From NCBI GenBank assembly GCA_016282855.1, contig JAEELT010000054.1, positions 1 through 54,565 on the forward strand: 54,565 nt of DNA. The letters are read 5' to 3'. A program made the translations under genes and the position numbers. Each line of letters opens with the position of its first letter. Positions within the stretch are counted from its first letter, which is position 1. The stretch comes from Clostridiaceae bacterium. GTDB lineage: Bacteria; Bacillota; Clostridia; Oscillospirales; Acutalibacteraceae. The notes beneath the pieces are model-generated. The model ran no database searches, was not told the origin of the DNA, and saw only the letters and a list, made by a program, of their open reading frames with translations. Below are positions 564-25,878 of the stretch, in pieces.

Positions 564-2810
564 TCAGGTTTTATAATACTGCGGCAGATATTGTTTGTGC
601 GCTTCCTTCATTTCGTTGAAACACTTGGTTGCCGCTTCCCAGTCTCCCACAAGCGGGTGAATGAGCAGGGCGTTGAGCGCCGCTTCTTCATCGCCGTCTC
701 TGCCGGCCTTGACAGTGTAGTTTTCATATTCTTTTACCACACGCATAAGGCCGATAATGTGATGGTTGTCAATTTCACCCACAGGCAGGGGCTTTGCGCC
801 GTCGCTGCCTATCCTCGCGGCGATTTCAATTACATCATCCGGCTTAAGGAAGGGAAGGGTGTCGCCGTTTTTGACATTGACTACCTGTATATCGTTTGTG
901 TCATTCGCTATGGCACTTATGAGATTGACGGCAACGAGCGAATACTTGTGACCGCCTCTCTGGTCAAGCAGCGCGGGCTTAACATACAGCCCTTCATCGC
1001 TGTACATTTCGAGCAGCTCTTCCTCTATCTCCATACACACCTGAGCTCTGCTTTTTTCACCTTCAAGCAGGTGCTTGAGCTTCGCGTTTCTGCAGTAATA
1101 ATACTGCAGGTATGATGAGGGCAGGGCGTGAATTGCGGCGAGCGTTTCGAGAGAGAAGCCGTCATCCTTGATGTTTGCCATAACCTTGGGTGAGAAGCCC
1201 TTTTCAATCAACTCGTCAATGAGCTCTCTGCCGCCCGAGCGCACACTCGTCATCCAGCTGAGATGATTGAGACCGACATAGGTGTATTCCATATCTTCGC
1301 CCACAATTTCCTTTGTGTCATCAATCATATCAATGGGCACGTTGCACAGACCTATGCACTTTACATTGGTGTTGTTAAGCACAAACTCGGTGATGATACC
1401 GGAGGGATTTGTGAAGTTAATCAGCCAGGCATCGGGGCAGATTGCCTCAATCCTGTCGCAGATGTTTTTGATAACAGGTATGGTTCTCTGAGCCTTGAAG
1501 AAGCCGCCTATACCTGTTGTTTCCTGACCGATAAGGTTATATTTGAGAGGGATTGTTTCGTCAAGATGTCTTGCCGGAAGCTTGCCCACTCTTATCTGAG
1601 TAACAACGAAATCCGCGCCTTCGAGCGCCTCGTCAAGGTTATCGGTGAGCAGGGTTTCGCACTCAACGCCCGCGGCCTTGAGCATACGCACGCAGAGCCC
1701 GCCGACAATATTTCTCTTCCTGTCGTCTATATCCATAAACGATATTTTCTTAAGGCGGAGTTTATCCTGTGCCTTGAGGAAGCCGTCTATGAGCTCGGGG
1801 CAGTAGGTGCTGCCGGAGCCGATAACAGCCACGGTAATCTCTTTGGGGGCACTGTCTGTGATTTCGTCTGCGTGTGCATAGTCCTGCATAATCCAGTTAA
1901 TGCAGCCTGTAACAGGCGCCTGTGTAAGCTTTTTGAATATGAGCTTCTTTGAAGCGTATTGCCTGGCCCTTTCGGTGAGCTCACGGATATAAGTCGGAGA
2001 GCCGACTTTTACGTTTATTGAGCCGGAGAGAATAACCTCAACCTCGTCGCCCTCGTAATCCATCTGATTTACCAGGGAGGCAATCGACTTTGCACCTCTG
2101 TCTGCCATTTTAACGCAGTATTGCAGAGCGTGGGCATCCCCCTGCTCAACAGCGTCAAAGAAGAAGCCTACAAAGTTGCGGGTGTGCTCGGGCTCATCTG
2201 GGTTTTCTATTTTACCGAGCAACTCAAGAAACTCATCACGGTTTTTTATGCCGTAATGCTCCTTCACCATTTCGGTGATGGGGCTTTTTTCTATGCCGAG
2301 AAACAGCTCTCTGTACGCAATCTCATAAGCTTTTATGGCTATGGTCTGGCCGCCGGAAAGGTCGCCCGAAAAAACTCCCAGGCCCATAAGCTGAAGCATA
2401 TTGCCCTTGGAGTCAATGCCGTTGCAGCATACGCCGGTGCCGCAGTTGTAGCCCACGGCGGCGCCCGTGTCGGAGCCGGCCTTAATGATGAGGTATCCGT
2501 CATTGAACACTTCAAAATTCTCAAGGCCCTTCTCTCTGAGCAACGCGCACATTTTGTCGTGCTGCCATTTGTGGTCTATGCCGGCAAGCCCCATCAGCGT
2601 GAAAGAGATGCGGCTCATATCAAGCCCGCTGTTTTTGCAGAGAGTGCGTATGCCGTCTATGATAATGTCGGACGCCTCATCGAAGCCGCCCTCTAAGTTT
2701 TCGTGGTTACTGCCTTTGCCCGTATAGGACATAATAAGCTTTTTGGCGCTGTCAAAAAGGGCAAACGCTGTTTTTGTGCCGCCGCCGTCAACACCTATGT
2801 AAAATTTCAT
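564..2810 (-). CDS. Fusion of BadF-type sugar kinase and GH4 6-phospho-beta-glucosidase
   Basis: Residues 1-312 form a BadF/BadG/BcrA-type ATPase of the N-acetylglucosamine-kinase kind, starting with the phosphate-1 motif MKFYIGVDGGGTKTAFALFD and including YNCGTGVCCNG (about 121-131). Residues 324-748 are a complete glycoside hydrolase family 4 enzyme: NAD-binding VIGSGSTY (329-336), NFTNPSG (465-471), CNVP with metal-ligand Cys489, and GLNHLSW with His516. In GH4 the CNxP signature marks 6-phospho-beta-glucosidases. Family knowledge: GH4 uses NAD+ and Mn2+ and hydrolyses phosphorylated disaccharides. The inferred role is a two-step cytoplasmic enzyme that phosphorylates a beta-disaccharide with ATP and then cleaves it, replacing PTS uptake. 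No PTS or transporter gene is nearby. RBS GAGGT precedes the ATG. It follows a GH109-like gene by 32 nt in one operon. Confidence 0.85.
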   Translation of the reverse strand: MKFYIGVDGGGTKTAFALFDSAKKLIMSYTGKGSNHENLEGGFDEASDIIIDGIRTLCKNSGLDMSRISFTLMGLAGIDHKWQHDKMCALLREKGLENFEVFNDGYLIIKAGSDTGAAVGYNCGTGVCCNGIDSKGNMLQLMGLGVFSGDLSGGQTIAIKAYEIAYRELFLGIEKSPITEMVKEHYGIKNRDEFLELLGKIENPDEPEHTRNFVGFFFDAVEQGDAHALQYCVKMADRGAKSIASLVNQMDYEGDEVEVILSGSINVKVGSPTYIRELTERARQYASKKLIFKKLTQAPVTGCINWIMQDYAHADEITDSAPKEITVAVIGSGSTYCPELIDGFLKAQDKLRLKKISFMDIDDRKRNIVGGLCVRMLKAAGVECETLLTDNLDEALEGADFVVTQIRVGKLPARHLDETIPLKYNLIGQETTGIGGFFKAQRTIPVIKNICDRIEAICPDAWLINFTNPSGIITEFVLNNTNVKCIGLCNVPIDMIDDTKEIVGEDMEYTYVGLNHLSWMTSVRSGGRELIDELIEKGFSPKVMANIKDDGFSLETLAAIHALPSSYLQYYYCRNAKLKHLLEGEKSRAQVCMEIEEELLEMYSDEGLYVKPALLDQRGGHKYSLVAVNLISAIANDTNDIQVVNVKNGDTLPFLKPDDVIEIAARIGSDGAKPLPVGEIDNHHIIGLMRVVKEYENYTVKAGRDGDEEAALNALLIHPLVGDWEAATKCFNEMKEAHKQYLPQYYKT

Positions 2811-2842: not shown

Positions 2843-4105
2843 TTATTCTTCAAAGCAGTCGTTGCATACCTCTTCAAGGCAGAATATGCCGCGCCTGTAG
2901 GGCTCTCTGTCTATCCACATACCGTTTGTGAAATCCGGGAACGGAACGGGAGCGGAGCCGATGGCTATTGACTGCTCGGAAAGAGCGGTGACTGCCATCC
3001 AGGTTGCTGTGTCATAAACATCTATCGGCGGCTTTGCCTCGAGCTTTATGCTCTCAACGAAAGCGCTGAGCACTAGATAATCCATGCCGCCGTGGCCGCC
3101 CGCGTGTATGCCTTCTTCGGAGTATTTCTTCCAGAGCGGATGCTCGTATTTGTCGCGGTAGCCGTCTTCCGTAAACTTCTCCCAGACGTGAGTCCAGTGG
3201 CTGCTGTCTTCGTGTGAAACGCCTTCAAGGTAAATTGTGCCGCCGTCTTCCATATATATGCCCTTGGTGCCCTGAATCCTGTAAGCCCTTGAATAGGGGC
3301 GGGGTAGGCAGCAGTCGTGGGTGAGCACCACGGTTTCGCCGTTGGCGCATTTTATCATAGTGGTGACTATATCGCCTTGGTTGAAATGATAATCCACCAG
3401 GTCATAAGCTTCGCCCTTGTTGTTTTTGATCCAGCCGTTAAGACCTCTTGACTTGGTTGCCATTGAAACGAGAGAGATGAACCTGTTGCCTCTGTTTATG
3501 CTGAGCACCTTGGAAATAGGGCCGAGCTGGTGGGTGGGGTATAGCTCACCGTTACGGTGCTGGAAGTTGAACAGGCGTCCGTGTCTGTCTTCCCTGCCGA
3601 GTGAAATCTCCTCACGCAGGTCGTGCTGATAACCGCCCTGCAGGTGAACAAGCTCGCCGAATATGCCCTGCTTGACCATATTGAACAGAGCCATTTCGTT
3701 GCGGTCATAGCAGCAGTTTTCGAGCAGCATACAGAATTTGCCCGTTTCCTCGCTTGCTCTTACCATCTGCCAGCATTCCTCGATGCTTGCGCTGCCGCCG
3801 ACTTCAATGCCGACATGCTTGCCCGCTCTCATTGCATCAGTGGCTATACGGGCGTGGGTAATCCAGGTGGTGCAGCACATTACCGCGTCTATATCATCTC
3901 TTGCGAGAAGCTCTTTGTAGTTGAGATATACGTCGGGAGCGGTGCCTGTTTTTTCAAGCACTATTTTCTGCCCTTCCAGCGCTCTGTCTTCATATTTATC
4001 GCACACCGCGGGCACAACAACGCCCTCGCAGCCGAGCAGCTCACCCAGGTTGCCTCTGCCTCTGCCGCCCAGACCTATAACACCTATTCTGACTGTGTCT
4101 TTCAT
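2843..4105 (-). CDS. Gfo/Idh/MocA-family protein, GH109-like
   Basis: The N-terminal Rossmann motif is IGVIGLGGRGRGN (about 7-19). The middle carries EVGGSASIEECW in place of the usual EKP dehydrogenase motif, and the C-terminal half has GYQHDLR and NGELYPTHQLGP, which match my memory of GH109 NAD-dependent alpha-N-acetylgalactosaminidases. In that family NAD stays bound and hydrolysis proceeds by transient oxidation, the same chemistry as the GH4 domain in the next gene. The pair could process one amino-sugar-containing glycan. There is no signal peptide, so it acts in the cytoplasm. RBS AAGGGGG precedes the ATG. A plain sugar dehydrogenase remains possible. Confidence 0.75.
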   Translation of the reverse strand: MKDTVRIGVIGLGGRGRGNLGELLGCEGVVVPAVCDKYEDRALEGQKIVLEKTGTAPDVYLNYKELLARDDIDAVMCCTTWITHARIATDAMRAGKHVGIEVGGSASIEECWQMVRASEETGKFCMLLENCCYDRNEMALFNMVKQGIFGELVHLQGGYQHDLREEISLGREDRHGRLFNFQHRNGELYPTHQLGPISKVLSINRGNRFISLVSMATKSRGLNGWIKNNKGEAYDLVDYHFNQGDIVTTMIKCANGETVVLTHDCCLPRPYSRAYRIQGTKGIYMEDGGTIYLEGVSHEDSSHWTHVWEKFTEDGYRDKYEHPLWKKYSEEGIHAGGHGGMDYLVLSAFVESIKLEAKPPIDVYDTATWMAVTALSEQSIAIGSAPVPFPDFTNGMWIDREPYRRGIFCLEEVCNDCFEE

Positions 4106-6412: not shown

Positions 6413-6586
6413 TCATTCTTTCGGTTTCAACTCAATAAACACCGGCTCAGTCGGATTATTGAACCAAGGAAACCTCGAAGTGTTTGATACTCCGGAACTA
6501 ACTACCATCTTTCCATCAAAGAAGCCCTTGGTATACTTTGGAAAGCAGAATAAAAATGTTTTAACAGCAAACGGCTGATTATTCAC
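6413..6586 (-). CDS. Small hypothetical protein or gene remnant, overlapping the IspD/DJ-1 gene stop
   Basis: 57 residues starting with GTG, overlapping the stop codon of the preceding gene in the sequence GTGAATAA. The product contains FAVKTFLFCFPKYTKGFFDG and ends PTEPVFIELKPKE; it looks like coding sequence, with sensible hydrophobic alternation, but no family is recognised. It could be the surviving 3' end of a longer gene. Together with the next small gene it fills the stretch between the cassette and the DUF5685 gene, where I see no terminator. Confidence 0.4.
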   Translation of the reverse strand: MNNQPFAVKTFLFCFPKYTKGFFDGKMVVSSGVSNTSRFPWFNNPTEPVFIELKPKE

Positions 6587-7865
6587 GAAAACAGATTGTT
6601 TTTGCTATTCTATCTGCTACCTCTTCATCTACAAGTATTTTCACGAGTTCCAACGCAAACGGGATAGTTGCCCCGAGCCCCTGACCTGTGATTATATTAT
6701 CATCTACAACTACCGACTCATCGAGCACTTCTACTGATTCCATAGAATCCTTGAAATCCGGATGAACTGTAGCTTTTTCCATCAAGCCCAGTCCAGCCAG
6801 AATCGTAGGCGCTGAGCATACAGCTGCAACATACTTGTTCTCAGCAAACTCTCGGCACTTCTCTTTAACAAGTTTGCTTTCTCTGAGTTTTTCAATTCCT
6901 ATCCGTCCGCCAGGAAGTATGATCAACTGTGCCTTGTCATACTCGACATTCTCAGCTAAGCAATCAACCTGAATAAGAATTTCCCTCGAACTCTTAACAT
7001 AACGCCTTCCCATGATGGACGCCATGATGACTTTCAGTCTAGCACGACGAAGCAGATCGACTACCAACAATCCTTCGCATTCTTCAAAGCCATCGGCGAG
7101 GAAAACGACCACATCCCCTGCGACCTTATCTTTACTCTTCAGTTGCTGCTCAAGGACATACCCCTCAAATAACTCAAGATCATCTTTCGTGGTAATCTTG
7201 ATATTATCCTGGCTACCCTTTGAGAAGAAGATCTTCTTCCCCATCGCATACATAAGAGTAGTCGTGTGTGGTTCAACAGTATCAATTACTCCCGTTTCCA
7301 CAGCTTCCTTATACATATCCACAAGGAAACCATACTGGAACGCATGAGGTGTGTTCATAACAGCGATGGTGTCCCGGTTGATGTATTCTTCTGTGAAATT
7401 ATTAGGATCGGAAACAGACGCAGGTAATTTCTTCATGCCGGACAGAAGCAGGTAATCTGTCGTAGAGATGGCATTCGTACCTTTCTCCTTACAAACCTTT
7501 ATGACATCTGCAATTATGTCAGGTTTTATAAAAGGAGATGCGCCAAAATGAAAGAGTACTGTATCATCTTTTTGTGCTTTATCAGAGAGATAATTCATGC
7601 CATTCATAACAGACTCTTGGAAAGTGGCTCCGCCTTCAGTCACCCATTTTAGCTTTTCAAAACTGTATTTCTCTTTCAATTCCCAGATATAATCCACATA
7701 AGGCTTTACGCAGACTACAAGAATAGCATCTATATCTGGATGCTTATCAAATGGTTCAATTGTATAAGCTAAGATCGGCTTTCCAAGAATCTCCACAAAC
7801 TGTTTCGGAATTCCTGCGCCTAATCTGTTTCCTACTCCTCCAGCGAGGATGACTGCTATATTCAT
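6579..7865 (-). CDS. IspD-like nucleotidyltransferase fused to a DJ-1/PfpI domain
   Basis: Residues 1-240 follow the IspD/TarI cytidylyltransferase fold: LAGGVGNRLGAGIPKQF (7-23), NTPHAF (171-176) and NIKITTKDDL (221-230). However, the usual HDAxRPF loop reads HFGASPF (106-112), so the conserved Asp and Arg are absent, pointing to a changed substrate or metal site. Residues 250-428 form a complete DJ-1/PfpI domain with DGFEECEG (acidic pocket Glu261/262) and nucleophile-elbow Cys350 in AAVCSAPT. DJ-1 relatives act as glyoxalase III, deglycase or hydratase. The gene follows the LicC-like gene by 14 nt, in a block with LicA-, LicC- and LicD-like genes. It probably makes or protects a CDP-activated phospho-polyol; substrate unknown. 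The MEP-pathway kinase ispE is far away, at 45010. Confidence 0.85.
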   Translation of the reverse strand: MNIAVILAGGVGNRLGAGIPKQFVEILGKPILAYTIEPFDKHPDIDAILVVCVKPYVDYIWELKEKYSFEKLKWVTEGGATFQESVMNGMNYLSDKAQKDDTVLFHFGASPFIKPDIIADVIKVCKEKGTNAISTTDYLLLSGMKKLPASVSDPNNFTEEYINRDTIAVMNTPHAFQYGFLVDMYKEAVETGVIDTVEPHTTTLMYAMGKKIFFSKGSQDNIKITTKDDLELFEGYVLEQQLKSKDKVAGDVVVFLADGFEECEGLLVVDLLRRARLKVIMASIMGRRYVKSSREILIQVDCLAENVEYDKAQLIILPGGRIGIEKLRESKLVKEKCREFAENKYVAAVCSAPTILAGLGLMEKATVHPDFKDSMESVEVLDESVVVDDNIITGQGLGATIPFALELVKILVDEEVADRIAKTICFRE

Positions 7866-7879
7866 TCTTTCACCACGCT

Positions 7880-8587
7880 TTATTGTTTCTGTACTTCACG
7901 CGCTTTGATCAAATCGTCAACGGTATCAACTTCGGTCCAAGCATATCCTTTGACATCTTTATAATACAAATCAAAGTCGTTCTCAAAAATCATCTGAACA
8001 ATGGCATCTTCAAACAACTGATCATACATTTCAGCATTGACCATTGTATCTATTTCTTCTAAGAGAAATCGTGCAGAAACTGCATCAAGTTTAGTGACGC
8101 ATACATACTGGGCGAAGAAAGAAGACAATGCCTTACTCATCACACAGATTTTATCGTCCTGCACTTGAACGTTGTATTTCCCCGTGGTCTTGCCGGAGTC
8201 CACAAGAACATACGGCTTGTCTGTGTTCTGGCAGATAATCTCTTCAATCAATCGATCCTCCAGCACAATATCAGAGCTTAATATTGTCACATTATCACGT
8301 TCAAGATACTTCCTTGCAAACCAAAGAGAAGCAATTGAACTTGTTGTCGCATAGAAAGGATTGCGAACGACAATCACATTCTCTCTTTCTACTTCACGAA
8401 GAACATGATCATACATGAAACCGGCCACAACAACAATTTCAGCTTTATGATCAAATTTTCTGATCGTTCTGACCATGCGTTGAAGGACAGTGGAATGGCG
8501 ATCAAGTTTATATAGTGACTTGGGCGTTTTAATTGTGAGAGGCTGAAGACTTGTACCTTTGCCGGCGGCTAAAATAATATACGTCAT
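7880..8587 (-). CDS. LicC-like sugar-phosphate/choline-phosphate nucleotidyltransferase
   Basis: A 235-residue nucleotidyltransferase-fold protein: ILAAGKGTSLQPLTIKTPKS (5-24), catalytic-metal Asp in ILSSDIV, and the C-terminal TEVDTVDDL signature. This matches LicC and short NDP-sugar pyrophosphorylases. The Arg normally found in GxGTRLxPLT is Ser13 here, which could weaken or alter nucleotide-triphosphate binding. The chosen ATG overlaps the stop of the kinase gene as ATGA and has GGAGGT upstream, giving tight coupling to that kinase. The expected reaction is activation of the kinase's phospho-alcohol product with CTP for LicD transfer. Confidence 0.85.
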   Translation of the reverse strand: MTYIILAAGKGTSLQPLTIKTPKSLYKLDRHSTVLQRMVRTIRKFDHKAEIVVVAGFMYDHVLREVERENVIVVRNPFYATTSSIASLWFARKYLERDNVTILSSDIVLEDRLIEEIICQNTDKPYVLVDSGKTTGKYNVQVQDDKICVMSKALSSFFAQYVCVTKLDAVSARFLLEEIDTMVNAEMYDQLFEDAIVQMIFENDFDLYYKDVKGYAWTEVDTVDDLIKAREVQKQ

Positions 8588-9525
8588 CACAGTACCTCCT
8601 CGTACATTTCCAACGCCTTTTTGCTGTAGTCTCTTGCAAATCGATACCATTGCGGTTTTAAGTACCCTATTTTCTGTCCGGACGCTTCCTTAAACATCGT
8701 CCAATGCATATAAAAGAAGCCTGTTATCGCAATCCAAGCATAGAAGTGTCGTTTTTCAATCAGATCCGGTTCATGGCCGAAATAGACAAACAACACGCGG
8801 TCTACTTCTTCATCGGAATGGTCGCCACCGCAAACGTATGTGCCCACATCAAAGCCCGGATCGTTATAACCGGCATATTCCCAATCAGTAAGATAAATCT
8901 CGGAATCGTTGATCAGAAAGTTCTCATCCCGGCTATCCCCTTGTGTGAGACACATAGGAATACCATCCGTTTTTGCAAAATCGTACAGTCTGTACACCCT
9001 ATCTCTAATTTCCGCGAATTCCGGAAAATCAGGATAGTTTTCCCCATACTGATCAGTTGGTGTCAAGTCCCTTATAGTTTCCCACTTTGTCTTGACATCA
9101 AACTCATATCGGACTCTTACAGGAGCTTCATGAAGCTTATGGATAAGGCGAACTCCGCGCACTATATCACTGACGTTCTTGTAATCAAACCCACGGTTAT
9201 TAATATAGCGAGCAATCTTCCATCCTTTGGAAACGCTCATGGCAACGAGAGTTGTATCCACTCGTGCATCATTCGCCTGACTCTGGATCATCGACTCTCT
9301 TCCACGATCAATGAGCACCTCAGACCCGAGTCCAGGGAACCGGAAGATGTACTTTCCACCGTTCAATTCAAATGTAAGGACTGAGTTGGATAGGCCCTTC
9401 TGTAGCGGCTTCAGTTCGCTGATTTGTTCTTTATTGCAATTGAACACTTCACATATGGTATCATAGATAAAATCAATATCCTCTTGGTGCAAAACACCAC
9501 CGGTTGTTTGAATAGCATCTCCCAT
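8587..9525 (-). CDS. LicA-like choline/ethanolamine-type kinase
   Basis: 312 residues of the aminoglycoside/choline kinase fold. The catalytic loop reads QGDSRDEN (195-202) with Asp197 and Asn202; the first position, normally His, is Gln. The metal-binding Asp is in YLTDWEYAGYNDPGFDVG (Asp214). The start is the ATG preceded by AAGGGGAG just after the LicD stop; a longer frame would overlap LicD by 176 nt. LicA phosphorylates choline in phosphocholine-decorating bacteria. Here the neighbours (aminotransferase, TagD-like and IspD-like enzymes) make another amino alcohol or polyol a serious alternative. Translationally coupled to the LicC-like gene. Confidence 0.85.
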   Translation of the reverse strand: MGDAIQTTGGVLHQEDIDFIYDTICEVFNCNKEQISELKPLQKGLSNSVLTFELNGGKYIFRFPGLGSEVLIDRGRESMIQSQANDARVDTTLVAMSVSKGWKIARYINNRGFDYKNVSDIVRGVRLIHKLHEAPVRVRYEFDVKTKWETIRDLTPTDQYGENYPDFPEFAEIRDRVYRLYDFAKTDGIPMCLTQGDSRDENFLINDSEIYLTDWEYAGYNDPGFDVGTYVCGGDHSDEEVDRVLFVYFGHEPDLIEKRHFYAWIAITGFFYMHWTMFKEASGQKIGYLKPQWYRFARDYSKKALEMYEEVL

Positions 9526-9538
9526 CTCTTCTCTCCCC

Positions 9539-10378
9539 TTAAAAACTGTATTCAGAGACAGGAGCATGCGGCTCTCGTTTATTCTCCGGCGGAAGTTGCA
9601 TATAATCTCCATATAAATAAGAAAGAAATGCATCATAATCCTTGGAACCATATAACATATGCCCTTCAAACTCATATTCGGCGCGGTCCGTAATCCATTT
9701 TTTAGGAAATCCATACCGCAAATCTAATACCGACTTTCTGTAAAGCTTTCCAAAAGATGTGTACATTAGAATGCGGACATATTTATCAGAATCATTTCGA
9801 CTCTTTTTCGTATAGTAGCTCAAGCGTTTATATACCCAATTAATAGGTATTTTAGAGAGAAGAGTCCACCATACTTTTGCTGCACCTTTACTTGATACTC
9901 TTCCGACTTCGGACCAGGTTATCTTGCGTAAGCAGAAACAGTTGAAGTCCTGGATCATCTGCCCTAACGTGCTTTTCGGCACATCATCTAGTGGAAACAC
10001 GTCAACAAAAACGCCTGTCTTACACTTAATGTGTTCCTGACCTGCCCGAATGAATGTGGTTCCAGTTCTTCTCAATTTTCCATAGCCCCAACGATAATAT
10101 GGGTCGGTAGTATGATCTTGGAAATAGCAGATAGAAGGATTCATTTTGAAAGACAAAGTCTTAAAACGCTCAAAATCCTCTCTCAGCATACCAATATCAG
10201 CATCATCATCCCAAGGGATATACCCCTTATGGCGAACAGCCCCCAATTGTGTCCCAGCGAGAATGACATAATTAATATTATTCTCTCTACACACTCTGTC
10301 AAATTCAACGAGCATATCCAGTTGCAATAACTGCATCCTTCGGAATTCGTCACCTTTTATTTCCTTAATTGCTGCCAT
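9539..10378 (-). CDS. LicD-family phosphotransferase (second copy)
   Basis: The LicD signature is clear: AGTQLGAVRHKGYIPWDDDA (about 41-60), DIGMLREDFERF, then DVFPLDDVP (about 127-135) and the C-terminal YGDYMQLPP. LicD enzymes move phosphocholine or related phospho-alcohols from a CDP carrier onto teichoic acid, LOS or capsule sugars. The ATG at 10378 has GGAGGG 8 nt upstream and is preferred over the in-frame TTG one codon earlier. It stands directly before the LicA- and LicC-like genes, so it is the likely user of their product. The other LicD in this locus, at 24923, is only distantly similar and probably acts on a different acceptor. Confidence 0.9.
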   Translation of the reverse strand: MAAIKEIKGDEFRRMQLLQLDMLVEFDRVCRENNINYVILAGTQLGAVRHKGYIPWDDDADIGMLREDFERFKTLSFKMNPSICYFQDHTTDPYYRWGYGKLRRTGTTFIRAGQEHIKCKTGVFVDVFPLDDVPKSTLGQMIQDFNCFCLRKITWSEVGRVSSKGAAKVWWTLLSKIPINWVYKRLSYYTKKSRNDSDKYVRILMYTSFGKLYRKSVLDLRYGFPKKWITDRAEYEFEGHMLYGSKDYDAFLSYLYGDYMQLPPENKREPHAPVSEYSF

Positions 10379-10395
10379 CAAAATGACCCTCCAAA

Positions 10396-11670
10396 TTATA
10401 TCCGGGAGTATTCACCCTTATAATAATCTTCTATGACTTTACAAATGGACAATGAGGTCTCATCAGATATATAGAGATTCTTTTTTTGACTCTCAATAGA
10501 TTTTGCAAAAGCAACAATCTCATATCGGATGCCTTCTCCATCCAATTGATAGAAATATCTCTTGTTCTTTGTCTGATCCTCAAATCTGACCTCAAAGTAA
10601 TCAGTCTTCCACCATGGGGCAGGAACATAGATATACCCCTTTGTTCCGGTAATAATCAATTCACCTTCCGCTTTAGCAGCTTTGCCTACCTTTAAAGAAG
10701 CCACTGATTTTTCATAGAGAAAATCAATTTTCGTAAATCCATCGAAGTTCAAAGATTCGTCAATGATTTTTGAGATAACACTTTTGCTCTTATAGTTAGA
10801 CCCAAGCAATTGAAATATCGGAAGAAGAGCTGTTGGGCCCCAAGCACAAATGCTGTTTTGTTTTGAAGACAGTTCAACACCCATTTCACCAGCCTTATCT
10901 TCTAAGCTGGTACACACTGAATCAACAGAAACAATCTCGCCGATCTTTCCACTTTTTGCAAGGACTAGGAGTCGAGAGTATGCCGTGGAATAAGCCGTCT
11001 TAATGGCGTCAATAAGAATAAGGCGATTATCTCTTGCAAGTGTGAGTAATTCCTGACAATCAGCTTCACTACGGGCTATTGGTGATTCACAAATAACATG
11101 CTTTCCGGCTCTTAGAGCTCTACCTACATCTTCGTAGTGCTTATCAGGGTGAGTAGCAATATAAACAGCATCAACTCCTAAAAAATCTTGGTTACACTCC
11201 TTGTGCTCAACGCCGTTCACATACTGCATTTCTCGAATAAACTTCTGGCACAAGCTGTTCTCACCAACAGTCCCTATGGCCAATTTTCTCTTTTCAGTCC
11301 TAATCTCAGAACTTGACACACCTTCAGTTCTGGGCAGGTAAATTACCTTACAATACTCATTCAGATAATCAAAACAACCTTCCCAATCAGAGCCGACGGT
11401 AAAAATATCAATGCTAAGTCTCCGGATATCATCGATCTTCTGGCCCTCGTATTCTTCAACAAGAATCTCATCAGCGATACCTGTCTCTTTAACAGCCGCA
11501 ATGCGCTCCATCAAGGACTGCTGATTATTAATCTTACCTCTTGTTTTGTCATAGTCATCCGAGGTAATACCAACAATTAGATAATCACCAAGGGCTTTCG
11601 CACGCTCCAAAAGTCGTATATGCCCATAGTGCAGAAGATCATATGTCCCATATGTAATTACCTTAACCAT
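10396..11670 (-). CDS. TagD-like cytidylyltransferase fused to a shortened Gfo/Idh/MocA domain
   Basis: Residues 1-128 are a glycerol-3-phosphate/ethanolamine-phosphate cytidylyltransferase-type domain: TYGTYDLLHYGHIRLLERAK (6-25, with HYGH) and RTEGVSSSEIR (114-124). Residues 130-424 resemble a Gfo/Idh/MocA oxidoreductase (VDAVYIATHPDKHYEDV, RALRAGKHVICESP). Two things are odd in the second half: the Rossmann segment before VDAVYIATHP is about 20 residues shorter than usual, and the conserved Lys of the EKP motif is Ser196. The second domain may therefore be a binding or scaffold domain rather than a working dehydrogenase. It lies between the class V aminotransferase and LicD, within the phospho-alcohol module. 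A CDP-glycerol-like or CDP-aminoalcohol product is inferred. Confidence 0.85.
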   Translation of the reverse strand: MVKVITYGTYDLLHYGHIRLLERAKALGDYLIVGITSDDYDKTRGKINNQQSLMERIAAVKETGIADEILVEEYEGQKIDDIRRLSIDIFTVGSDWEGCFDYLNEYCKVIYLPRTEGVSSSEIRTEKRKLAIGTVGENSLCQKFIREMQYVNGVEHKECNQDFLGVDAVYIATHPDKHYEDVGRALRAGKHVICESPIARSEADCQELLTLARDNRLILIDAIKTAYSTAYSRLLVLAKSGKIGEIVSVDSVCTSLEDKAGEMGVELSSKQNSICAWGPTALLPIFQLLGSNYKSKSVISKIIDESLNFDGFTKIDFLYEKSVASLKVGKAAKAEGELIITGTKGYIYVPAPWWKTDYFEVRFEDQTKNKRYFYQLDGEGIRYEIVAFAKSIESQKKNLYISDETSLSICKVIEDYYKGEYSRI

Positions 11671-11694
11671 ACTAATTCCTCGTTCGTAATAATA

Positions 11695-12768
11695 TTACAG
11701 CAAGCCTCTCTTTTGCATATCCTTCAACGCATTAATCAGAGTTGTATTATCTTCGTGTTTAAGGCATCCGATGTGACCGACACGGAAGATAACGTTTTTC
11801 ATATCTCCGCCATTAGGGCAAATCCAGATATTATACTCATCCTTTAGTATCTCAAAAATCATATACGCATCTGCCGTCGTCGGATGAACAGGAGTTACAC
11901 CATTTGCCGGAGACTCAGACACAAACTCAAACGGCAATTCCTTTATCTTCTTTCTGAAATCCTCCGCCTGCGCAGCTACTCGTGCAACCTCAACATCAGC
12001 ACCACCGGCAGCTTCAATCTCCTTCAATCTTGTATTGATCTGACGAAGAATACCCACAGCAGGTGTAAAAGGTGTCTGGCCACGCTCCATATTCTTAAGC
12101 ACGTCTGCCAGGTTAAAATACATAGATTTTACTTTTCGGGTCGTGACCCGTTCAACCGCCCTTGGCGCAAGGATAATTATTGAAATACCGGGCGGGCATG
12201 CAAGCGCCTTCTGAGATCCGGTTATCATGACATCTGCACCACAATGAGCCATATCAAATGGATCAGCGAGGAATGATGACACGCAGTCGCAAACATAGAA
12301 AATATTGTTCTTCTTACAGAACTCCCCAATCATTTCAGAGTCATAGAGGACGCCCGTAGAAGTCTCGTCAATGTTAACAAGTAGGCCGGTGAAATACTGT
12401 CCGTCATACTCATACAATCGTTCCTTTGTCAACTGTTGACCATGGTTAAGTCTGATTATCGTATGCGGCACTTCATAAATCTCGCAAAGTTCAACAAATC
12501 GATGGCCAAAGCTACCGCCATCAATAATAAGAACTTTGTCTGATTCGCCAAAGCAGTTCATGACAACGGCTTCCATGGAGCCTGTGGACGAATTGGTCAT
12601 AAACGCTGCTCTGGAGCCTTCCGGAGCCTTTGCAAATCTGAGCATCAATTTCTCGTTCTCAAGCATAACATTGGAAAACTCAGGTGTCCTAAAATATGGC
12701 ACTTGTTCACCACCAACTGCACGAACATCGTCACTACACATTACTGGACCCACAGTAAAATTTAGCAT
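11695..12768 (-). CDS. Class V aminotransferase, 2-aminoethylphosphonate transaminase-like
   Basis: 357 residues of PLP fold type [16 protein letters not shown] at the start, substrate-site NSSTGSMEA (59-67), cofactor Asp161 in VCDCVSSF, and Schiff-base Lys187 in [12 protein letters not shown]. The pattern fits the PhnW/serine-pyruvate/alanine-glyoxylate group. The phosphonate enzymes PEP mutase and phosphonopyruvate decarboxylase are absent from the window, so true phosphonate synthesis is not supported here. As an alternative it may aminate a phosphorylated ketone or aldehyde (for example dihydroxyacetone phosphate to serinol phosphate), making an amino-alcohol phosphate for the adjoining cytidylyltransferase. 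Confidence 0.85.
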
Positions 12769-13065: not shown

Positions 13066-14031
13066 TCAAAAATGAAGAGTCTTTACAATCTTTCTCTTGA
13101 TTCTTTTTAATAATGGCTTATGAAGATTACGGACGATTAATTCACTAATAGTCTTTCCATCCTCACGTGCGAAGAAACTGTCTCTCTTACTATTTCTACT
13201 AACTGATTTCACAATCGGTGAATTGGTTTGAACAACAACATCGTTTTGTATCTCACAAAGGTTTACTTTATCTGATACCGCTTCTAAAATACGAATCGCT
13301 CTATCGTTATGAGCCAACACAATACTTGTGCCTTTATCATCAAAGAAATCTGGCAACAGTTCGTGTACACCCCAGAAATCAGCTATTGTGAAATCTGACT
13401 CTCGTTCTACGCCTTTAAAACCACACTCGTAGCAGGATTCTCTCAAGTAAAGATTATTCAAGAACCCTCTCATGTAAGGATCCTTATGCTGAGATTGTAT
13501 ATATGAATCTCCATTATCAAAATCTATTCGGAGTCCAAAATTCCTCCACCCATTTGTTTTATCGCGGAAATTTATATTGGTAATCTTTTTGTATTCAGAC
13601 ACCTCTTTCAAATATCTGCGCCAAACCATTCTACTCGGGACTCCGTGGCAGATAAAGTCAATTGTCAACAGCAATTCTTTCCACTCATCACCCTTAACTG
13701 TACTTCTCAGAAATGAGATAAGGCCTGCAACCTGACACGGTGTACCACAGAAAAGCACCTTTTTCCGAGAGACCAATGCTTCTCTAACGTTAGTGTAAGT
13801 ATCGCCCATCGAGGATTGCACATACTTACTCTGCATAATCCTATGCAAATCCTGGATACTATTACATGCCTCGTGATGCACCTGCCATTCACTATCAAAT
13901 GCGGCGCCAAATACTATCCCGCTTTCAGAAAGAATCTTCTGAGCAATTACATAGAATATTCCACCCGAAGAACTCATTGCACGAATCGTCTCGTCCTTGT
14001 TGTAGGCAGCAAATGATTTTGTCTTGCTCAT
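13066..14031 (-). CDS. Coenzyme F420 hydrogenase/dehydrogenase beta-subunit-like (FrhB-type) protein
   Basis: 321 residues with the FrhB hallmark regions: SSGGIFYVIAQKIL (about 20-33), KYVQSSMGDTY, FCGTPCQVAGL (about 93-103), FICHGVPS, and a C-terminal half with CYECGFKGVERESDFTIADF (iron-sulfur and flavin region). In methanogens FrhB is a flavin/iron-sulfur protein reducing F420; in capsule loci of Firmicutes and Bacteroidetes the homologues have no assigned reaction. The start overlaps the previous stop as ATGA and the stop overlaps the ferredoxin leader, so all three genes are translationally linked. A reductive modification of a pyruvylated or dehydrated sugar is a guess. Confidence 0.85.
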   Translation of the reverse strand: MSKTKSFAAYNKDETIRAMSSSGGIFYVIAQKILSESGIVFGAAFDSEWQVHHEACNSIQDLHRIMQSKYVQSSMGDTYTNVREALVSRKKVLFCGTPCQVAGLISFLRSTVKGDEWKELLLTIDFICHGVPSRMVWRRYLKEVSEYKKITNINFRDKTNGWRNFGLRIDFDNGDSYIQSQHKDPYMRGFLNNLYLRESCYECGFKGVERESDFTIADFWGVHELLPDFFDDKGTSIVLAHNDRAIRILEAVSDKVNLCEIQNDVVVQTNSPIVKSVSRNSKRDSFFAREDGKTISELIVRNLHKPLLKRIKRKIVKTLHF

Positions 14032-14531
14032 GCTGCCACCACCAATCCGTTGCCAGTAGGCGACATTATTTGAGCACTACTTAAGTACCCATAGGGGAGT
14101 CTTAACAAGTTTAACCATTTATTCTTTACCTTGCTAATCAAAGATGTTTTCGTGAGGTCATCAACATTTGTAATAAAGCCTTTGAGTCTTTCAAAGAATT
14201 CTTCTCGCTTTTTATTATACTTTGTTGATGCAGTAATGCATGGTGTCCCTACAAACAAGACTTCCTCCCCATCCCTTAATCGACTGATAATGCTCCGAAA
14301 TGTTGTTGAGAGTGATGATTGGACATATTTTGACCCTTGGCTGTTATGTATTCCATCTTTGCTATCGATTAATTTGTGAAAAACATTGAGGTTGTCATCA
14401 TAGCATGCGGCATATATAACTCCACCATCGCTTAACACTTCTCCTGCAATAAGTGGATATATGCCTCCTGATGAACTGTTACTTTTTTCCTCCTCATTGA
14501 AGCTGTAACAAGCAAATGGTTTTGTGATCAT
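14028..14531 (-). CDS. Internally deleted FrhB-type protein
   Basis: The first 95 residues parallel the intact downstream paralogue: SSSGGIYPLIAGEVLSDGG, QGSKYVQSSLSTTF, then VLFVGTPC. Immediately after this the sequence jumps to a stretch (KYNKKREEFFERLKGF) that matches the far C-terminal region of the family, so roughly 180 central residues, including the CxxC / ADFWG region, are missing without loss of frame. The product ends by reading into the start of its neighbour. The ATG at 14531 has GAGGAG 8 nt upstream. Such a remnant is probably inactive alone; it may be a decaying duplicate or could pair with the intact protein. Confidence 0.7.
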   Translation of the reverse strand: MITKPFACYSFNEEEKSNSSSGGIYPLIAGEVLSDGGVIYAACYDDNLNVFHKLIDSKDGIHNSQGSKYVQSSLSTTFRSIISRLRDGEEVLFVGTPCITASTKYNKKREEFFERLKGFITNVDDLTKTSLISKVKNKWLNLLRLPYGYLSSAQIMSPTGNGLVVAA

Positions 14532-14546
14532 GAGTGCTCTCCTCAT

Positions 14547-23066: not shown

Positions 23067-24842
23067 TCATACCTTGCCCTGATACCAAGCATGTATTTCA
23101 TCAACGATTACTTTCATATCACCTTCGCCATATCGCTGATCACAGATTAATGACAACTCGTTTGCCCTTACTCCCTCTTCCGCTCCCATAACCTCAGGCC
23201 AGTGAATCGGACAATAAATATCTTTTTCAATCAGTTGCTTACGCAATTCGTCCCTATCTTCTGTCTTCAAAAAAATTGGCAAGAAAAGCGGTGTATCTAC
23301 TTGGAGATTGACCTTCGGCAACGTCAAAACTATACCGTCAAGATCCTGCAATCCTGACAACAATGTCTCTGTATTCTTACGGCGCTGCTCAGCCACAGAC
23401 GTTACATCGGTTCCGGCAACTATTCCCAGAGATGTATCGTCAATCTTTAACATGCGGTCTACATGAATAAGGTCATTCTCAAATGTAGCATTCGCAAACA
23501 AGAAATTCTCTTTACTATTGATCTTCCCGGCCAGGTATTCATATTTTTCCTTCATGCCGGATATTTTATCTTCTACAGCATGGTTGCTATCCATTGTAGG
23601 CTTTTCCGAAAGGTTTCCATGCTTCTTTCCGACCCATCCGCCTGTAGGAATTGCAAACCATTTTCTGAGGCTTGCTATCAAGTAATCGCTATACTCCGAC
23701 AGAGAATCATTATGGAGCAGAGAATGCGTTATATCCTCAATAACCACCGCGCCGCTTTTATTGAGCTTCTTTATTTCATTATGACAAGCAGAGGTATCAA
23801 GTCCGAAATAGCTCATGATAATGACTATTGTGCGGGCGTCAGCTTCAGGAACCGTATAAGTAAATGCCCCGTTCTTATACTCAACATTATAAAACTCTAT
23901 TTTTATTCCTCTGTCAATGAACGACTGGAGCATGGATACACAGCAATAAGATGGTACAAGGACACGATTTATTGACTTATTATTCAAAATATCTCTCAAT
24001 GCTAAATCAATTGCATTTCTGCCCGAAAACGCAAATGTGCTGTCTTCTACGAAAGGCAGCCAATTAATTTCACCCACCGATGATTTCTTCTCTTCTCCAT
24101 CAAGCCAAAAAAAACTGCCTATTTCAGAATATGTCATTAATCCCCGGCCGCCCTTTCCTCTCTGCTTCTCTTCTCTCATAACACAGTACGGTCCATAATC
24201 CTTAACGTCATTTGCGCCTCTTACCACAATATCTGAATGCTTTAACACTTTTAGAACTGTATCCATCACAATCTTTAGATCCATTCTAAAAGAAACATTA
24301 TCTACATACTCAATATCCAAATCGAACCTTTCATCCCACTGAAGGTTATTTCTCCCATTGATTTGAGCAAGACCTGTTAATCCCGGCTTTACTTCATGCC
24401 GTCTGCGATATATAGATGAATAAAGTGGAAGATAATAGATGGAAAGCGGACGTGGGCCAACGATGCTCATATCTCCTTTCAAAATATTAAAAAGCTCAGG
24501 TAATTCGTCAATACTACTGCCTCGCAGGAACCGCCCGTACTTTGTAAGCCTTTTTTCATCGGATAACAAACGGCCATCTGGCCCGGTTTCGTTCGTCATA
24601 CTTCTAAACTTATACAACTGGAATATCTTCTCGTCTTTTCCGGGACGAGCCTGTTTAAATATGACCGGAGATCCCAATTTAACCCTTACCAATATCGCTG
24701 TTGCCAGCAAAACGGGACTAAGAATTACCAGTGCGATGCAAGACAACGTAACGTCAAGTAATCTCTTTATAAATCCTTGGTAAATGTTTTTCTTTTTCAT
24801 TTTTCTTTCCATTACTTGTGATGTACATAACACAATGGACAT
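23067..24842 (-). CDS. Undecaprenyl-phosphate sugar-1-phosphate transferase fused to a DegT-like domain
   Basis: Residues 18-220 form a bacterial sugar transferase (PglC/WcaJ C-terminal type): one membrane helix, FKQARPGKDEKIFQLYKFRS (62-81) and GDMSIVGPRP (123-132). Residues about 240-591 form a DegT/DnrJ/EryC1-like PLP fold, with SGRNAIDLAL (273-282), VVIEDITHS (366-374) and a candidate PLP Lys394 in SLRKWFAIPTGGW. The join (MREEKQRGKGGRGLM, 222-236) is in frame with no stop. The first domain starts the repeat unit on the lipid; the second could aminate a sugar or act as a binding domain. A 15-residue N-terminal extension before MKKKN is uncertain. Confidence 0.85.
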   Translation of the reverse strand: MSIVLCTSQVMERKMKKKNIYQGFIKRLLDVTLSCIALVILSPVLLATAILVRVKLGSPVIFKQARPGKDEKIFQLYKFRSMTNETGPDGRLLSDEKRLTKYGRFLRGSSIDELPELFNILKGDMSIVGPRPLSIYYLPLYSSIYRRRHEVKPGLTGLAQINGRNNLQWDERFDLDIEYVDNVSFRMDLKIVMDTVLKVLKHSDIVVRGANDVKDYGPYCVMREEKQRGKGGRGLMTYSEIGSFFWLDGEEKKSSVGEINWLPFVEDSTFAFSGRNAIDLALRDILNNKSINRVLVPSYCCVSMLQSFIDRGIKIEFYNVEYKNGAFTYTVPEADARTIVIIMSYFGLDTSACHNEIKKLNKSGAVVIEDITHSLLHNDSLSEYSDYLIASLRKWFAIPTGGWVGKKHGNLSEKPTMDSNHAVEDKISGMKEKYEYLAGKINSKENFLFANATFENDLIHVDRMLKIDDTSLGIVAGTDVTSVAEQRRKNTETLLSGLQDLDGIVLTLPKVNLQVDTPLFLPIFLKTEDRDELRKQLIEKDIYCPIHWPEVMGAEEGVRANELSLICDQRYGEGDMKVIVDEIHAWYQGKV

Positions 24843-24922: not shown

Positions 24923-25846
24923 TCAAACTCTCTGTTGATTTAAATATTCATTGTATGGCGTATTCAAATCATAGAAATGTGGAGAATCTAAAGGCAATCT
25001 TTTGTCAACGGAAGGTTTTGTCATGTAATCTCCATACCCTCTTGTCAAATACGTATCGTAATCTGCTGAGACACTAAAGAGCTTACCGTGAAACTCAATT
25101 CTCGTAAGGTTCGTTGCCTCATCAATCTTCATCATGCATCCACGTCCTGTTGTCAGACCGTTAAAGCCACCATACTCATGGCCTTTACCATTATATTTTT
25201 TTACTTGGTGGCCCGAAACTTTTATAATCCAGTTTCTGATAGTTTTCCCCCTGAAAACCAAGAGGAGAATATTTGCCACAGTATTCTCATATTTTTTCTT
25301 TCTAAGGTTTCTGGCTTTACGTTGAGTCATAAACAGATTATAGACCAAAGCCGCATATCTTTGAATTCTTTGTCGCAACAAATCCTCTGGAACTTCATCG
25401 AGCGGTGCAATATCAATCTTGACTCCAAGATTTCTATCTGTCAAACCATCTTCAAATGACCTGATATATGTAGTGCTGTTATTTCTCAATAAACCTATCG
25501 GAACGTATGCACAAAAATCCTTTGTTGTTCTGTAAAGAGAGTAGTGCTCCTTATCTCCGTACTGATCCCAAAGCTCAAACAGTTTATCATAATCTTTCCT
25601 TAACATTCCCACATCAAGGTCGTCGTCCCAAGGAATAAAATCATGCTCCCTAGCCGCTCCTAAGCATGTGCCCTCAGCGAGAAAATAGCGTAATCCGTGT
25701 TTCTTACAGAATTCATCAAAATAACAAAGGTTTTCAAAAAGCTTTTCTTGTAATAATTCCATATCTTCAGGTTTAACGGGTCCATGTCCTTTTCCATCCC
25801 CACCCGAATGAACTTTTTCATAAATACTGGTTTCGTCAGTATGCAT
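24923..25846 (-). CDS. LicD-family phosphotransferase (first copy)
   Basis: 307 residues with the LicD signature EGTCLGAAREHDFIPWDDDL (about 58-77) and DVGMLRKDYDKLFEL, then KIDIAPLDEVPED and a closing RGYGDYMTKP. The ATG at 25846 is chosen since GGAGG stands 8 nt upstream; the earlier in-frame ATG overlaps that RBS. It is far from the LicA/LicC-like genes but in the same operon. Together with the copy at 9539, it suggests two distinct phospho-alcohol attachment steps or two acceptors. Confidence 0.9.
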   Translation of the reverse strand: MHTDETSIYEKVHSGGDGKGHGPVKPEDMELLQEKLFENLCYFDEFCKKHGLRYFLAEGTCLGAAREHDFIPWDDDLDVGMLRKDYDKLFELWDQYGDKEHYSLYRTTKDFCAYVPIGLLRNNSTTYIRSFEDGLTDRNLGVKIDIAPLDEVPEDLLRQRIQRYAALVYNLFMTQRKARNLRKKKYENTVANILLLVFRGKTIRNWIIKVSGHQVKKYNGKGHEYGGFNGLTTGRGCMMKIDEATNLTRIEFHGKLFSVSADYDTYLTRGYGDYMTKPSVDKRLPLDSPHFYDLNTPYNEYLNQQRV

Positions 25847-25878
25847 TGTATTTTCCTCCATTACCCTGATTTTTGAAA

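What the first reader, a model, noticed from the sequence alone, without database searches (positions are those of the whole stretch)
6413..12768. Phospho-alcohol decoration module with three different nucleotidyltransferases
Seven consecutive leftward genes or domains combine a class V aminotransferase, a TagD-like cytidylyltransferase (fused), LicD, a LicA-like kinase, a LicC-like enzyme and an IspD-like enzyme (fused). Ordinary phosphocholine loci need one kinase, one cytidylyltransferase and LicD. Three nucleotidyltransferase folds plus an aminotransferase and a DJ-1 domain imply synthesis of at least one unusual activated group, for example an amino-alcohol phosphate such as serinol phosphate, or a phospho-polyol. 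No PEP mutase is present, which argues against a phosphonate.
Basis: partly seen in the sequence, partly recalled or inferred. Interest (0 to 1): 0.72.

Follow-up and report, generated by a model that had tools for sequence, protein, structure and literature searches.

The report
Amino-alcohol phosphate glycan decoration cassette
A row of six capsule genes contains a shared cassette (aminotransferase, cytidylyltransferase fused to a worn-out dehydrogenase, LicD transferase) that probably makes a CDP-activated amino-alcohol, perhaps CDP-serinol, for decorating surface sugars; phosphocholine-type genes lie beside it.

Summary
The domains are real: six tightly packed leftward genes (6579-12768) encode a class-V aminotransferase (AT5), TagD fused to a Gfo domain, LicD, a LicA-like kinase, a LicC-like enzyme and IspD fused to DJ-1, at the end of a capsule locus.

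They are not one module. The shared unit is aminotransferase + TagD-Gfo, often with LicD. Of 21 loci in the window's TagD-Gfo clade found through TagD-Gfo (window included), 17 have an aminotransferase nearby (13 AT5, 4 HisC-type) and 15 have LicD within 5 kb; in 16 stand-alone TagD loci the counts are 0 and 2. Ruminococcus albus 7 carries AT5-TagD-Gfo-LicD on plasmid pRUMAL01. Full-length IspD-DJ-1 was seen only in this genome.

In this clade Gfo lacks the catalytic Lys and Tyr (25 of 25 each) while TagD motifs persist: a pseudo-dehydrogenase.

Best explanation: the aminotransferase aminates a phosphorylated ketone or aldehyde (DHAP to serinol phosphate is my first candidate), TagD-Gfo makes the CDP-amino-alcohol, LicD transfers it. 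No PEP mutase was found in this genome. The substrate is inferred, not shown. New variant of a known kind.

The parts
11695..12768 (-). AT5, class-V PLP aminotransferase (PhnW-like, 357 aa)
   Evidence: Aminotran_5 58.2/21.5 bits; TIGR03301 PhnW-AepZ 151.5, below its cut-off 360.8; PDB 3f0h E 1.9e-191 over full length; the lysine of SQK (K187, PLP lysine by recall) invariant in the 24 rows aligned
10396..11670 (-). TagD cytidylyltransferase domain (about residues 1-126) fused to a Gfo/Idh/MocA pseudo-dehydrogenase domain
   Evidence: Pfam; TagD closest to glycerol-3-phosphate cytidylyltransferase 1coz, 126.5 bits; model pLDDT 83.8 matches Gfo folds, 3e9m E 1.8e-20; catalytic Lys and Tyr lost
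9539..10381 (-). LicD phosphotransferase
   Evidence: PF04991 134.1/22.6 bits; 59-65% identical orthologues beside AT5-TagD-Gfo in L036, L038 and R. albus L172
8587..9525 (-). LicA-like amino-alcohol (choline-type) kinase; start placed by me
   Evidence: Choline_kinase 44.8/29; PDB 4r77 choline kinase E 1.1e-12
7880..8587 (-). LicC/PntC-like nucleotidyltransferase; start placed by me
   Evidence: PDB 1jyk LicC E 1.8e-10, 6pd1 PntC-AEPT E 5.1e-7
6579..7865 (-). IspD/TarI-like cytidylyltransferase fused to a DJ-1 domain
   Evidence: Pfam; below NCBIfam cut-offs for IspD (131.9/181.3) and ribitol-5-P cytidylyltransferase (116.8/166) but above that for DJ-1 (144.5/131.25); fusion not seen elsewhere
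24923..25861 (-). second LicD in the same capsule locus (possible transferase for the other activated group)
   Evidence: PF04991 135.3/22.6

Best explanation
AT5, TagD-Gfo and LicD form a cassette that makes and transfers a CDP-activated amino-alcohol phosphate. Step 1 (inferred): AT5 moves an amino group to a phosphorylated carbonyl compound of central metabolism; first candidate DHAP giving serinol phosphate (about 0.4; others: ethanolamine-P, 3-amino-1,2-propanediol-P, a four-carbon amino-polyol phosphate). Step 2 (inferred from family and conserved catalytic motifs): the TagD domain couples this to CTP, giving a CDP-amino-alcohol. The Gfo domain keeps its fold but has lost NAD-site and catalytic residues (shown by sequence); it is probably a structural or regulatory remnant of an ancestor that did redox chemistry. 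Step 3 (inferred): LicD transfers the amino-alcohol phosphate to a sugar of the capsule. The kinase and LicC-like enzyme probably make a second group (phosphocholine or similar), and IspD-DJ-1 a third polyol-phosphate group; these are neighbours, not parts of the cassette.
For: Association by TagD-Gfo: in the window's clade (one branch, 100/100) 17 of 21 loci have an aminotransferase, AT5 in 13 (within 116 bases) and HisC-type in 4, and 15 of 21 have LicD within 5 kb; 0 and 2 of 16 stand-alone TagD loci. Without the window 16 of 20. Association by AT5: 9 of 391 class genomes match, own included; of the other 8, 5 have a TagD-Gfo protein within 2.7 kb and 3 have a LicC-type enzyme next to it instead. 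Cultured R. albus 7 has LicD-AT5(85%)-TagD-Gfo(75%)-LicD(59%)-GNAT-LicD. Two unrelated aminotransferase families fill one slot: in L058 a 77-residue AT5 C-terminal remnant lies just upstream of the HisC-type gene. Amine-modifying families recur with both types: GNAT in L172, L165, L038 (AT5) and L055 (HisC); octopine-dehydrogenase-like in L163 (AT5) and L037 (HisC). CDP-alcohol users sit beside relatives: CDP-OH_P_transf in L161; a CDP-glycerol glycerophosphotransferase next to AT5 and a stand-alone TagD-like enzyme in Bacteroides finegoldii. Not a phosphonate in this genome: no PEP mutase. Precedents: Cj1437 turns DHAP into (S)-serinol-P for a capsule (passages of PMC11800397); RtxA likewise (passages of PMC3222319); human PSAT1 does it very slowly (passages of PMC9283133).
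Against: No substrate was tested. 4 of 21 clade loci show no aminotransferase; two are cut at the contig end (L049, L060), one has little flank (L064), and L051 has full flanks and still none. PEP mutase is over cut-off in 8 of 32 distinct genomes holding the cassette or AT5-LicC pairs, including those of L048 and L066, close relatives of the window's TagD-Gfo, so AEP is not excluded there. The TagD pocket of the whole fused family differs from canonical TagD (R63 and W74 replaced in 41 of 41), also where no aminotransferase is present, so the substrate need not be a plain glycerol-phosphate analogue. Relatives of AT5 use varied substrates. HisC-family enzymes can also be decarboxylases (Cj1436), which would give ethanolamine-P. 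The model rests on 13 sequences.
Confidence: 0.6

Rival explanations
1. Phosphonate variant: AT5 is an AEP aminotransferase and the nucleotidyltransferase makes CMP-AEP, as in PntC-AEPT pathways.
For: AT5's best NCBIfam model is PhnW-AepZ; PDB hits include PntC-AEPT 6pd1; PEP mutase present in 8 of 32 genomes.
Against: Score 151.5 is far below the cut-off 360.8. No PEP mutase over cut-off in 24 of 32 genomes, own included, and in 0 of the 3 with AT5-LicC pairs (96-100% complete). Completeness of the 20 genomes G250-G269 is not given.
Confidence: 0.1
2. Glycerol-phosphate variant: TagD-Gfo makes CDP-glycerol (or another CDP-polyol), and the aminotransferase works on a sugar nucleotide of the same glycan, not on the phospho-alcohol.
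For: TagD is closest to glycerol-3-phosphate cytidylyltransferases; relatives outside the clade lie beside a CDP-glycerol glycerophosphotransferase (L067, L068); the genes are in capsule loci, where aminotransferases are common.
Against: R63 and W74 of canonical TagD are replaced in 41 of 41 fused proteins and kept in 16 of 16 stand-alone ones. AT5 is within 116 bases of TagD-Gfo in all 13 AT5 loci found through TagD-Gfo, and is absent from all 16 stand-alone TagD loci. The AT5 slot is also beside LicC-type enzymes.
Confidence: 0.2
3. Ordinary phosphocholine locus: kinase, LicC and LicD make and transfer phosphocholine and the other genes are unrelated passengers.
For: All three Lic-type parts are present; LicC is the best PDB match of 7880-8650.
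Against: The LicD beside AT5-TagD-Gfo has 59-65% orthologues in L036, L038 and R. albus at the same cassette, and no kinase match was found in those three loci. It explains only part of the row. The LicC pocket reading is inconclusive.
Confidence: 0.1

Closest known systems
PntC-AEPT (Treponema denticola Tde1415) and the Pnt phosphonate pathways, PMC6697681
   Same: class-V aminotransferase coupled to a cytidylyltransferase with LicD-like transferases nearby (passages and section 8 seen)
   Different: here the nucleotidyltransferase is TagD-type, not LicC-type, and no PEP mutase is found in the genome
lic phosphocholine system (LicA, LicC, LicD)
   Same: kinase, LicC-like enzyme and LicD are in the row
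   Different: the conserved partner of LicD here is AT5-TagD-Gfo
TagD/TarD glycerol-3-phosphate cytidylyltransferase
   Same: fold, HxGH and RTxGxSS motifs
   Different: fusion to a dead Gfo domain; R63 and W74 replaced in 41 of 41 fused proteins; below the TIGR01518 cut-off
Campylobacter jejuni Cj1437 serinol-phosphate capsule pathway, PMC11800397
   Same: an aminotransferase feeding an amino-alcohol phosphate to a capsule (passages)
   Different: C. jejuni couples serinol-P as an amide to glucuronate; no CDP activation is described in those passages

Membership tests
2-aminoethylphosphonate aminotransferase (PhnW/AepZ) | score over curated cut-off of TIGR03301 | tested here: not met
   151.5 against 360.8 bits
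Pnt phosphonate pathway | PEP mutase in the genome | tested here: not met
   PF13714 only below cut-off, TIGR02320 no match; genome 85.55% complete
TagD glycerol-3-phosphate cytidylyltransferase | score over TIGR01518 cut-off | tested here: not met
   113.5 against 165.4 bits
TagD glycerol-3-phosphate cytidylyltransferase | catalytic HxGH and RTxGxSS motifs | tested here: met
   conserved in every clade row that covers them
Active Gfo/Idh/MocA oxidoreductase | EKP lysine and catalytic tyrosine (K102, Y186 of KijD10) | tested here: not met
   0 of 25 and 0 of 25 in the clade; 5 of 18 and 16 of 18 outside it; mapping from the 3rbv alignment, mutant titles
LicD family | PF04991 gathering score | tested here: met
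   134.1/22.6
lic phosphocholine system | kinase, LicC and LicD together | tested here: met
   by family only; substrate not tested
lic phosphocholine system | LicC choline pocket | tested here: inconclusive
   by my reading of the alignment one Asp is Ser and the other Asp is kept
IspD or TarI | score over curated cut-off | tested here: not met
   131.9/181.3 and 116.8/166; a better IspD is at C123 (143 bits) and IspF at C39
CDP-amino-alcohol pathway | enzyme activities on amino-alcohol phosphates | not testable with these tools
   needs purified enzymes

The most novel reading that the evidence does not exclude
The cassette is a CDP-serinol pathway. In the ancestor a TagD-Gfo protein with a working dehydrogenase acted on the carbonyl carbon of a triose-phosphate-like compound; in this clade an aminotransferase took over that carbon, the dehydrogenase domain died but stayed as a scaffold, and at least two unrelated aminotransferase families have filled the slot. 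The result is a family of zwitterionic glycan decorations in gut bacteria of several phyla, further varied by N-acetylation or opine-type N-alkylation.
Probability: 0.35. Interest if true: 0.75.

Novelty: new variant of a known kind. Interest (0 to 1): 0.58.

Why it matters
Phosphocholine, phosphoethanolamine and AEP on surface glycans alter charge and host recognition (general knowledge). A further CDP-activated amino-alcohol shared by Bacillota, Bacteroidota, Fibrobacterota and Campylobacterota relatives (record titles) would add a new zwitterionic group. It would also correct names: AT5 homologues score best against an AEP-aminotransferase model and the fused protein is labelled adenylyltransferase/cytidyltransferase family in R. 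albus. It gives a testable case of a pseudo-dehydrogenase kept as part of a cytidylyltransferase.

Tried and rejected
One module with three nucleotidyltransferases: rejected as a conserved unit. Active oxidoreductase in the fusion: rejected for this clade. Glu75 of TagD as an amine-binding signature: dropped, because 6 of 16 fused relatives outside the clade also have Glu there and none of those 6 has an aminotransferase match by my queries. LicC pocket as a test of choline: inconclusive. A MFS organophosphate transporter beside L036 as a general part: only G049 of 11 genomes matched. Rfam: no match in 5000-33000. Paper searches: 'CDP-serinol' 0 papers; LicD with G3P cytidylyltransferase, aminotransferase and choline kinase (3 of 4 terms) 0 papers; the library lacks most subscription journals. 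The aminotransferase label is not significantly clustered on the tree (AT5 83, HisC 90 of 500 shuffles as low). Fisher values ignore relatedness and are overstated.

Rows dropped before counts: L050 (same contig as L036), L075 (TagD-Gfo in two frames), L041 (Gfo without TagD); L161-L165 came in through AT5 and are left out of the TagD-first counts; L082-L127 (weaker Gfo matches) were not examined; L079 and L080 are counted outside the clade although no TagD motif was found in them. Of 17 stand-alone TagD hits, 16 were fetched (not G013).
Full report
What is there. They lie at the end of a capsule-type locus (about 6.5-31 kb) with Wzx, Wzy, glycosyltransferases, pyruvyltransferase, acyltransferase, sugar transferase, a second LicD, FemAB-like and CapD-like genes.

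What is conserved. L048-L081 (34 loci) were examined. After dropping L050 and L075, and adding the window, L036-L040 and the five AT5-first loci L161-L165, 43 proteins went into a tree. The window lies in a branch of 25 with support 100/100. Of the 21 of these found through TagD-Gfo, 13 have AT5 within 116 bases, 4 have a HisC-type aminotransferase (three within 46 bases, L037 at 3.1 kb), and 4 have neither: L049 and L060 are cut at the contig end, L064 has about 2 kb on each side, L051 has 8.6 and 9 kb and is a true exception. LicD lies within 5 kb in 15 of 21. Outside the branch, 3 of 17 have AT5 (L069, L078, L081). In 16 stand-alone TagD loci of the same family there is no AT5 or HisC-type match and LicD in 2. 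Relatedness makes the Fisher values too good.

The reverse search. AT5 against 391 class genomes gave 9 at E <= 1e-60, own included. Of the other 8, five (58-85% identity) have a TagD-Gfo protein 0.03-2.7 kb away; the one in L164 is of a distant type outside the branch. Three (42-52%) have a LicC-type enzyme next to AT5 instead. The same LicD-AT5-LicC order is seen in Fusobacterium vincentii. So AT5 is not tied to TagD-Gfo alone; it pairs with a nucleotidyltransferase of either type.

Named examples. R. albus 7 plasmid pRUMAL01: LicD, AT5 (85%), TagD-Gfo (75%), LicD (59%), GNAT, LicD. Bacteroides finegoldii plasmid: CDP-glycerol glycerophosphotransferase, AT5 (37%), stand-alone TagD-like enzyme; its transferase is 66% and 65% identical to the one beside TagD-Gfo and a short-chain dehydrogenase in L067 and L068. 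I read this as the same transferase served by either a redox or an amination step; that is inference.

The slot has been refilled. L058 has 77 residues of an AT5 C-terminus just upstream of its HisC-type gene (53% identity). The tree needs three changes of the HisC label, at least two forced by strongly supported branches. GNAT genes of one family occur with AT5 (L172, L165, L038) and with HisC (L055); octopine-dehydrogenase-like genes with AT5 (L163, remnant beside L161, distant in L057) and with HisC (L037); OCD/mu-crystallin genes in L161, L163 and, further off, L164. Enzymes of these kinds act on amines or imines (general knowledge), which fits an amine made by the aminotransferase.

The dead domain. 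In the 25-member branch the EKP lysine is Ser, Ala or Thr in 25 of 25, the tyrosine is lost in 25 of 25 and the third glycine of the NAD motif is kept in 2 of 25; outside, 5 of 18, 16 of 18 and 16 of 18 keep them. The lysine and tyrosine columns align with KijD10 (3rbv); both fall 18 residues after the native numbers K102 and Y186 named in the mutant titles, an offset I inferred. The window, L048 and L051 have also lost about 20-25 residues of the nucleotide-binding half. TagD motifs are intact in all rows that cover them. The model still has the Gfo fold. None of the 25 rows with an aminotransferase has the lysine, but neither do 13 of 18 without one, so lysine loss is not explained by the aminotransferase alone.

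Substrate. TagD is closest to glycerol-3-phosphate cytidylyltransferase (126.5 bits) over ethanolamine-P (54.6) and choline-P enzymes (38.8). Yet R63 and W74 (1coz numbering, from the alignment) are replaced in all 41 fused proteins compared and kept in all 16 stand-alone ones. So the fused enzymes probably use a modified substrate, but this holds also where no aminotransferase is present. Serinol phosphate is my first candidate because DHAP is abundant and three aminotransferases are reported to make it (passages only). This step is inference, about 0.4.

Not phosphonate here. No PEP mutase in this genome. Over cut-off in 8 of 32 distinct genomes in all (5 of 24, 3 more of 8), among them those of L048, L057, L058, L059 and L066. 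In L058 it is not in the left 5.4 kb; the other places were not mapped against the cassettes.

The other genes. Kinase and LicC are Lic-type by family. IspD-DJ-1 keeps the DJ-1 Cys and Glu motifs in the alignment to fly DJ-1 beta (residue roles recalled). The genome has another IspD and IspF, so this one is free for another substrate. L048, the nearest TagD-Gfo relative, has LicD, two IspD-like genes without DJ-1, a kinase fused to what looks by eye like a nucleotidyltransferase, and a sugar-kinase-like gene beside the cassette: a second, differently ordered case of the same company.

Verdict. A real and widespread cassette, of uncertain substrate, beside ordinary Lic-type genes. New variant of nucleotidyl-activated glycan decoration.

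Noticed in passing
window 564-2810: BadF/BcrAD-type ATPase domain fused to a family-4 glycosyl hydrolase, followed by a GH109-type gene at 2843-4105.
   Followed up: no
window 23067-24842: Bacterial sugar transferase with a weak DegT/DnrJ-like match in its C-terminal part (21.5/19.8 bits).
   Followed up: no
window 13066-14546: FrhB-like gene next to a short gene that matches only the FrhB N-terminal domain.
   Followed up: no
L058 7243-7473: 77-residue AT5 remnant just upstream of a HisC-type aminotransferase.
   Followed up: yes
L161 5021-5412: Broken octopine-dehydrogenase-like gene beside the cassette.
   Followed up: partly
L048 1864-3654 and L166 6351-7958: Choline-kinase domain fused behind a nucleotidyltransferase; by Pfam in L166, by eye and a kinase match in L048.
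   Followed up: partly
L064 313-1920 and 3277-4962: Two acetolactate-synthase-like genes on either side of a clade TagD-Gfo that has no aminotransferase in its short contig.
   Followed up: no
L166, L167, L168, L173: AT5 next to a LicC-type enzyme; no PEP mutase in the three genomes of L166-L168. L173 was not tested for it.
   Followed up: partly
L178 / NC_014824.1 343780-349550: The cassette lies on a plasmid typed as mobilizable in R. albus 7.
   Followed up: no
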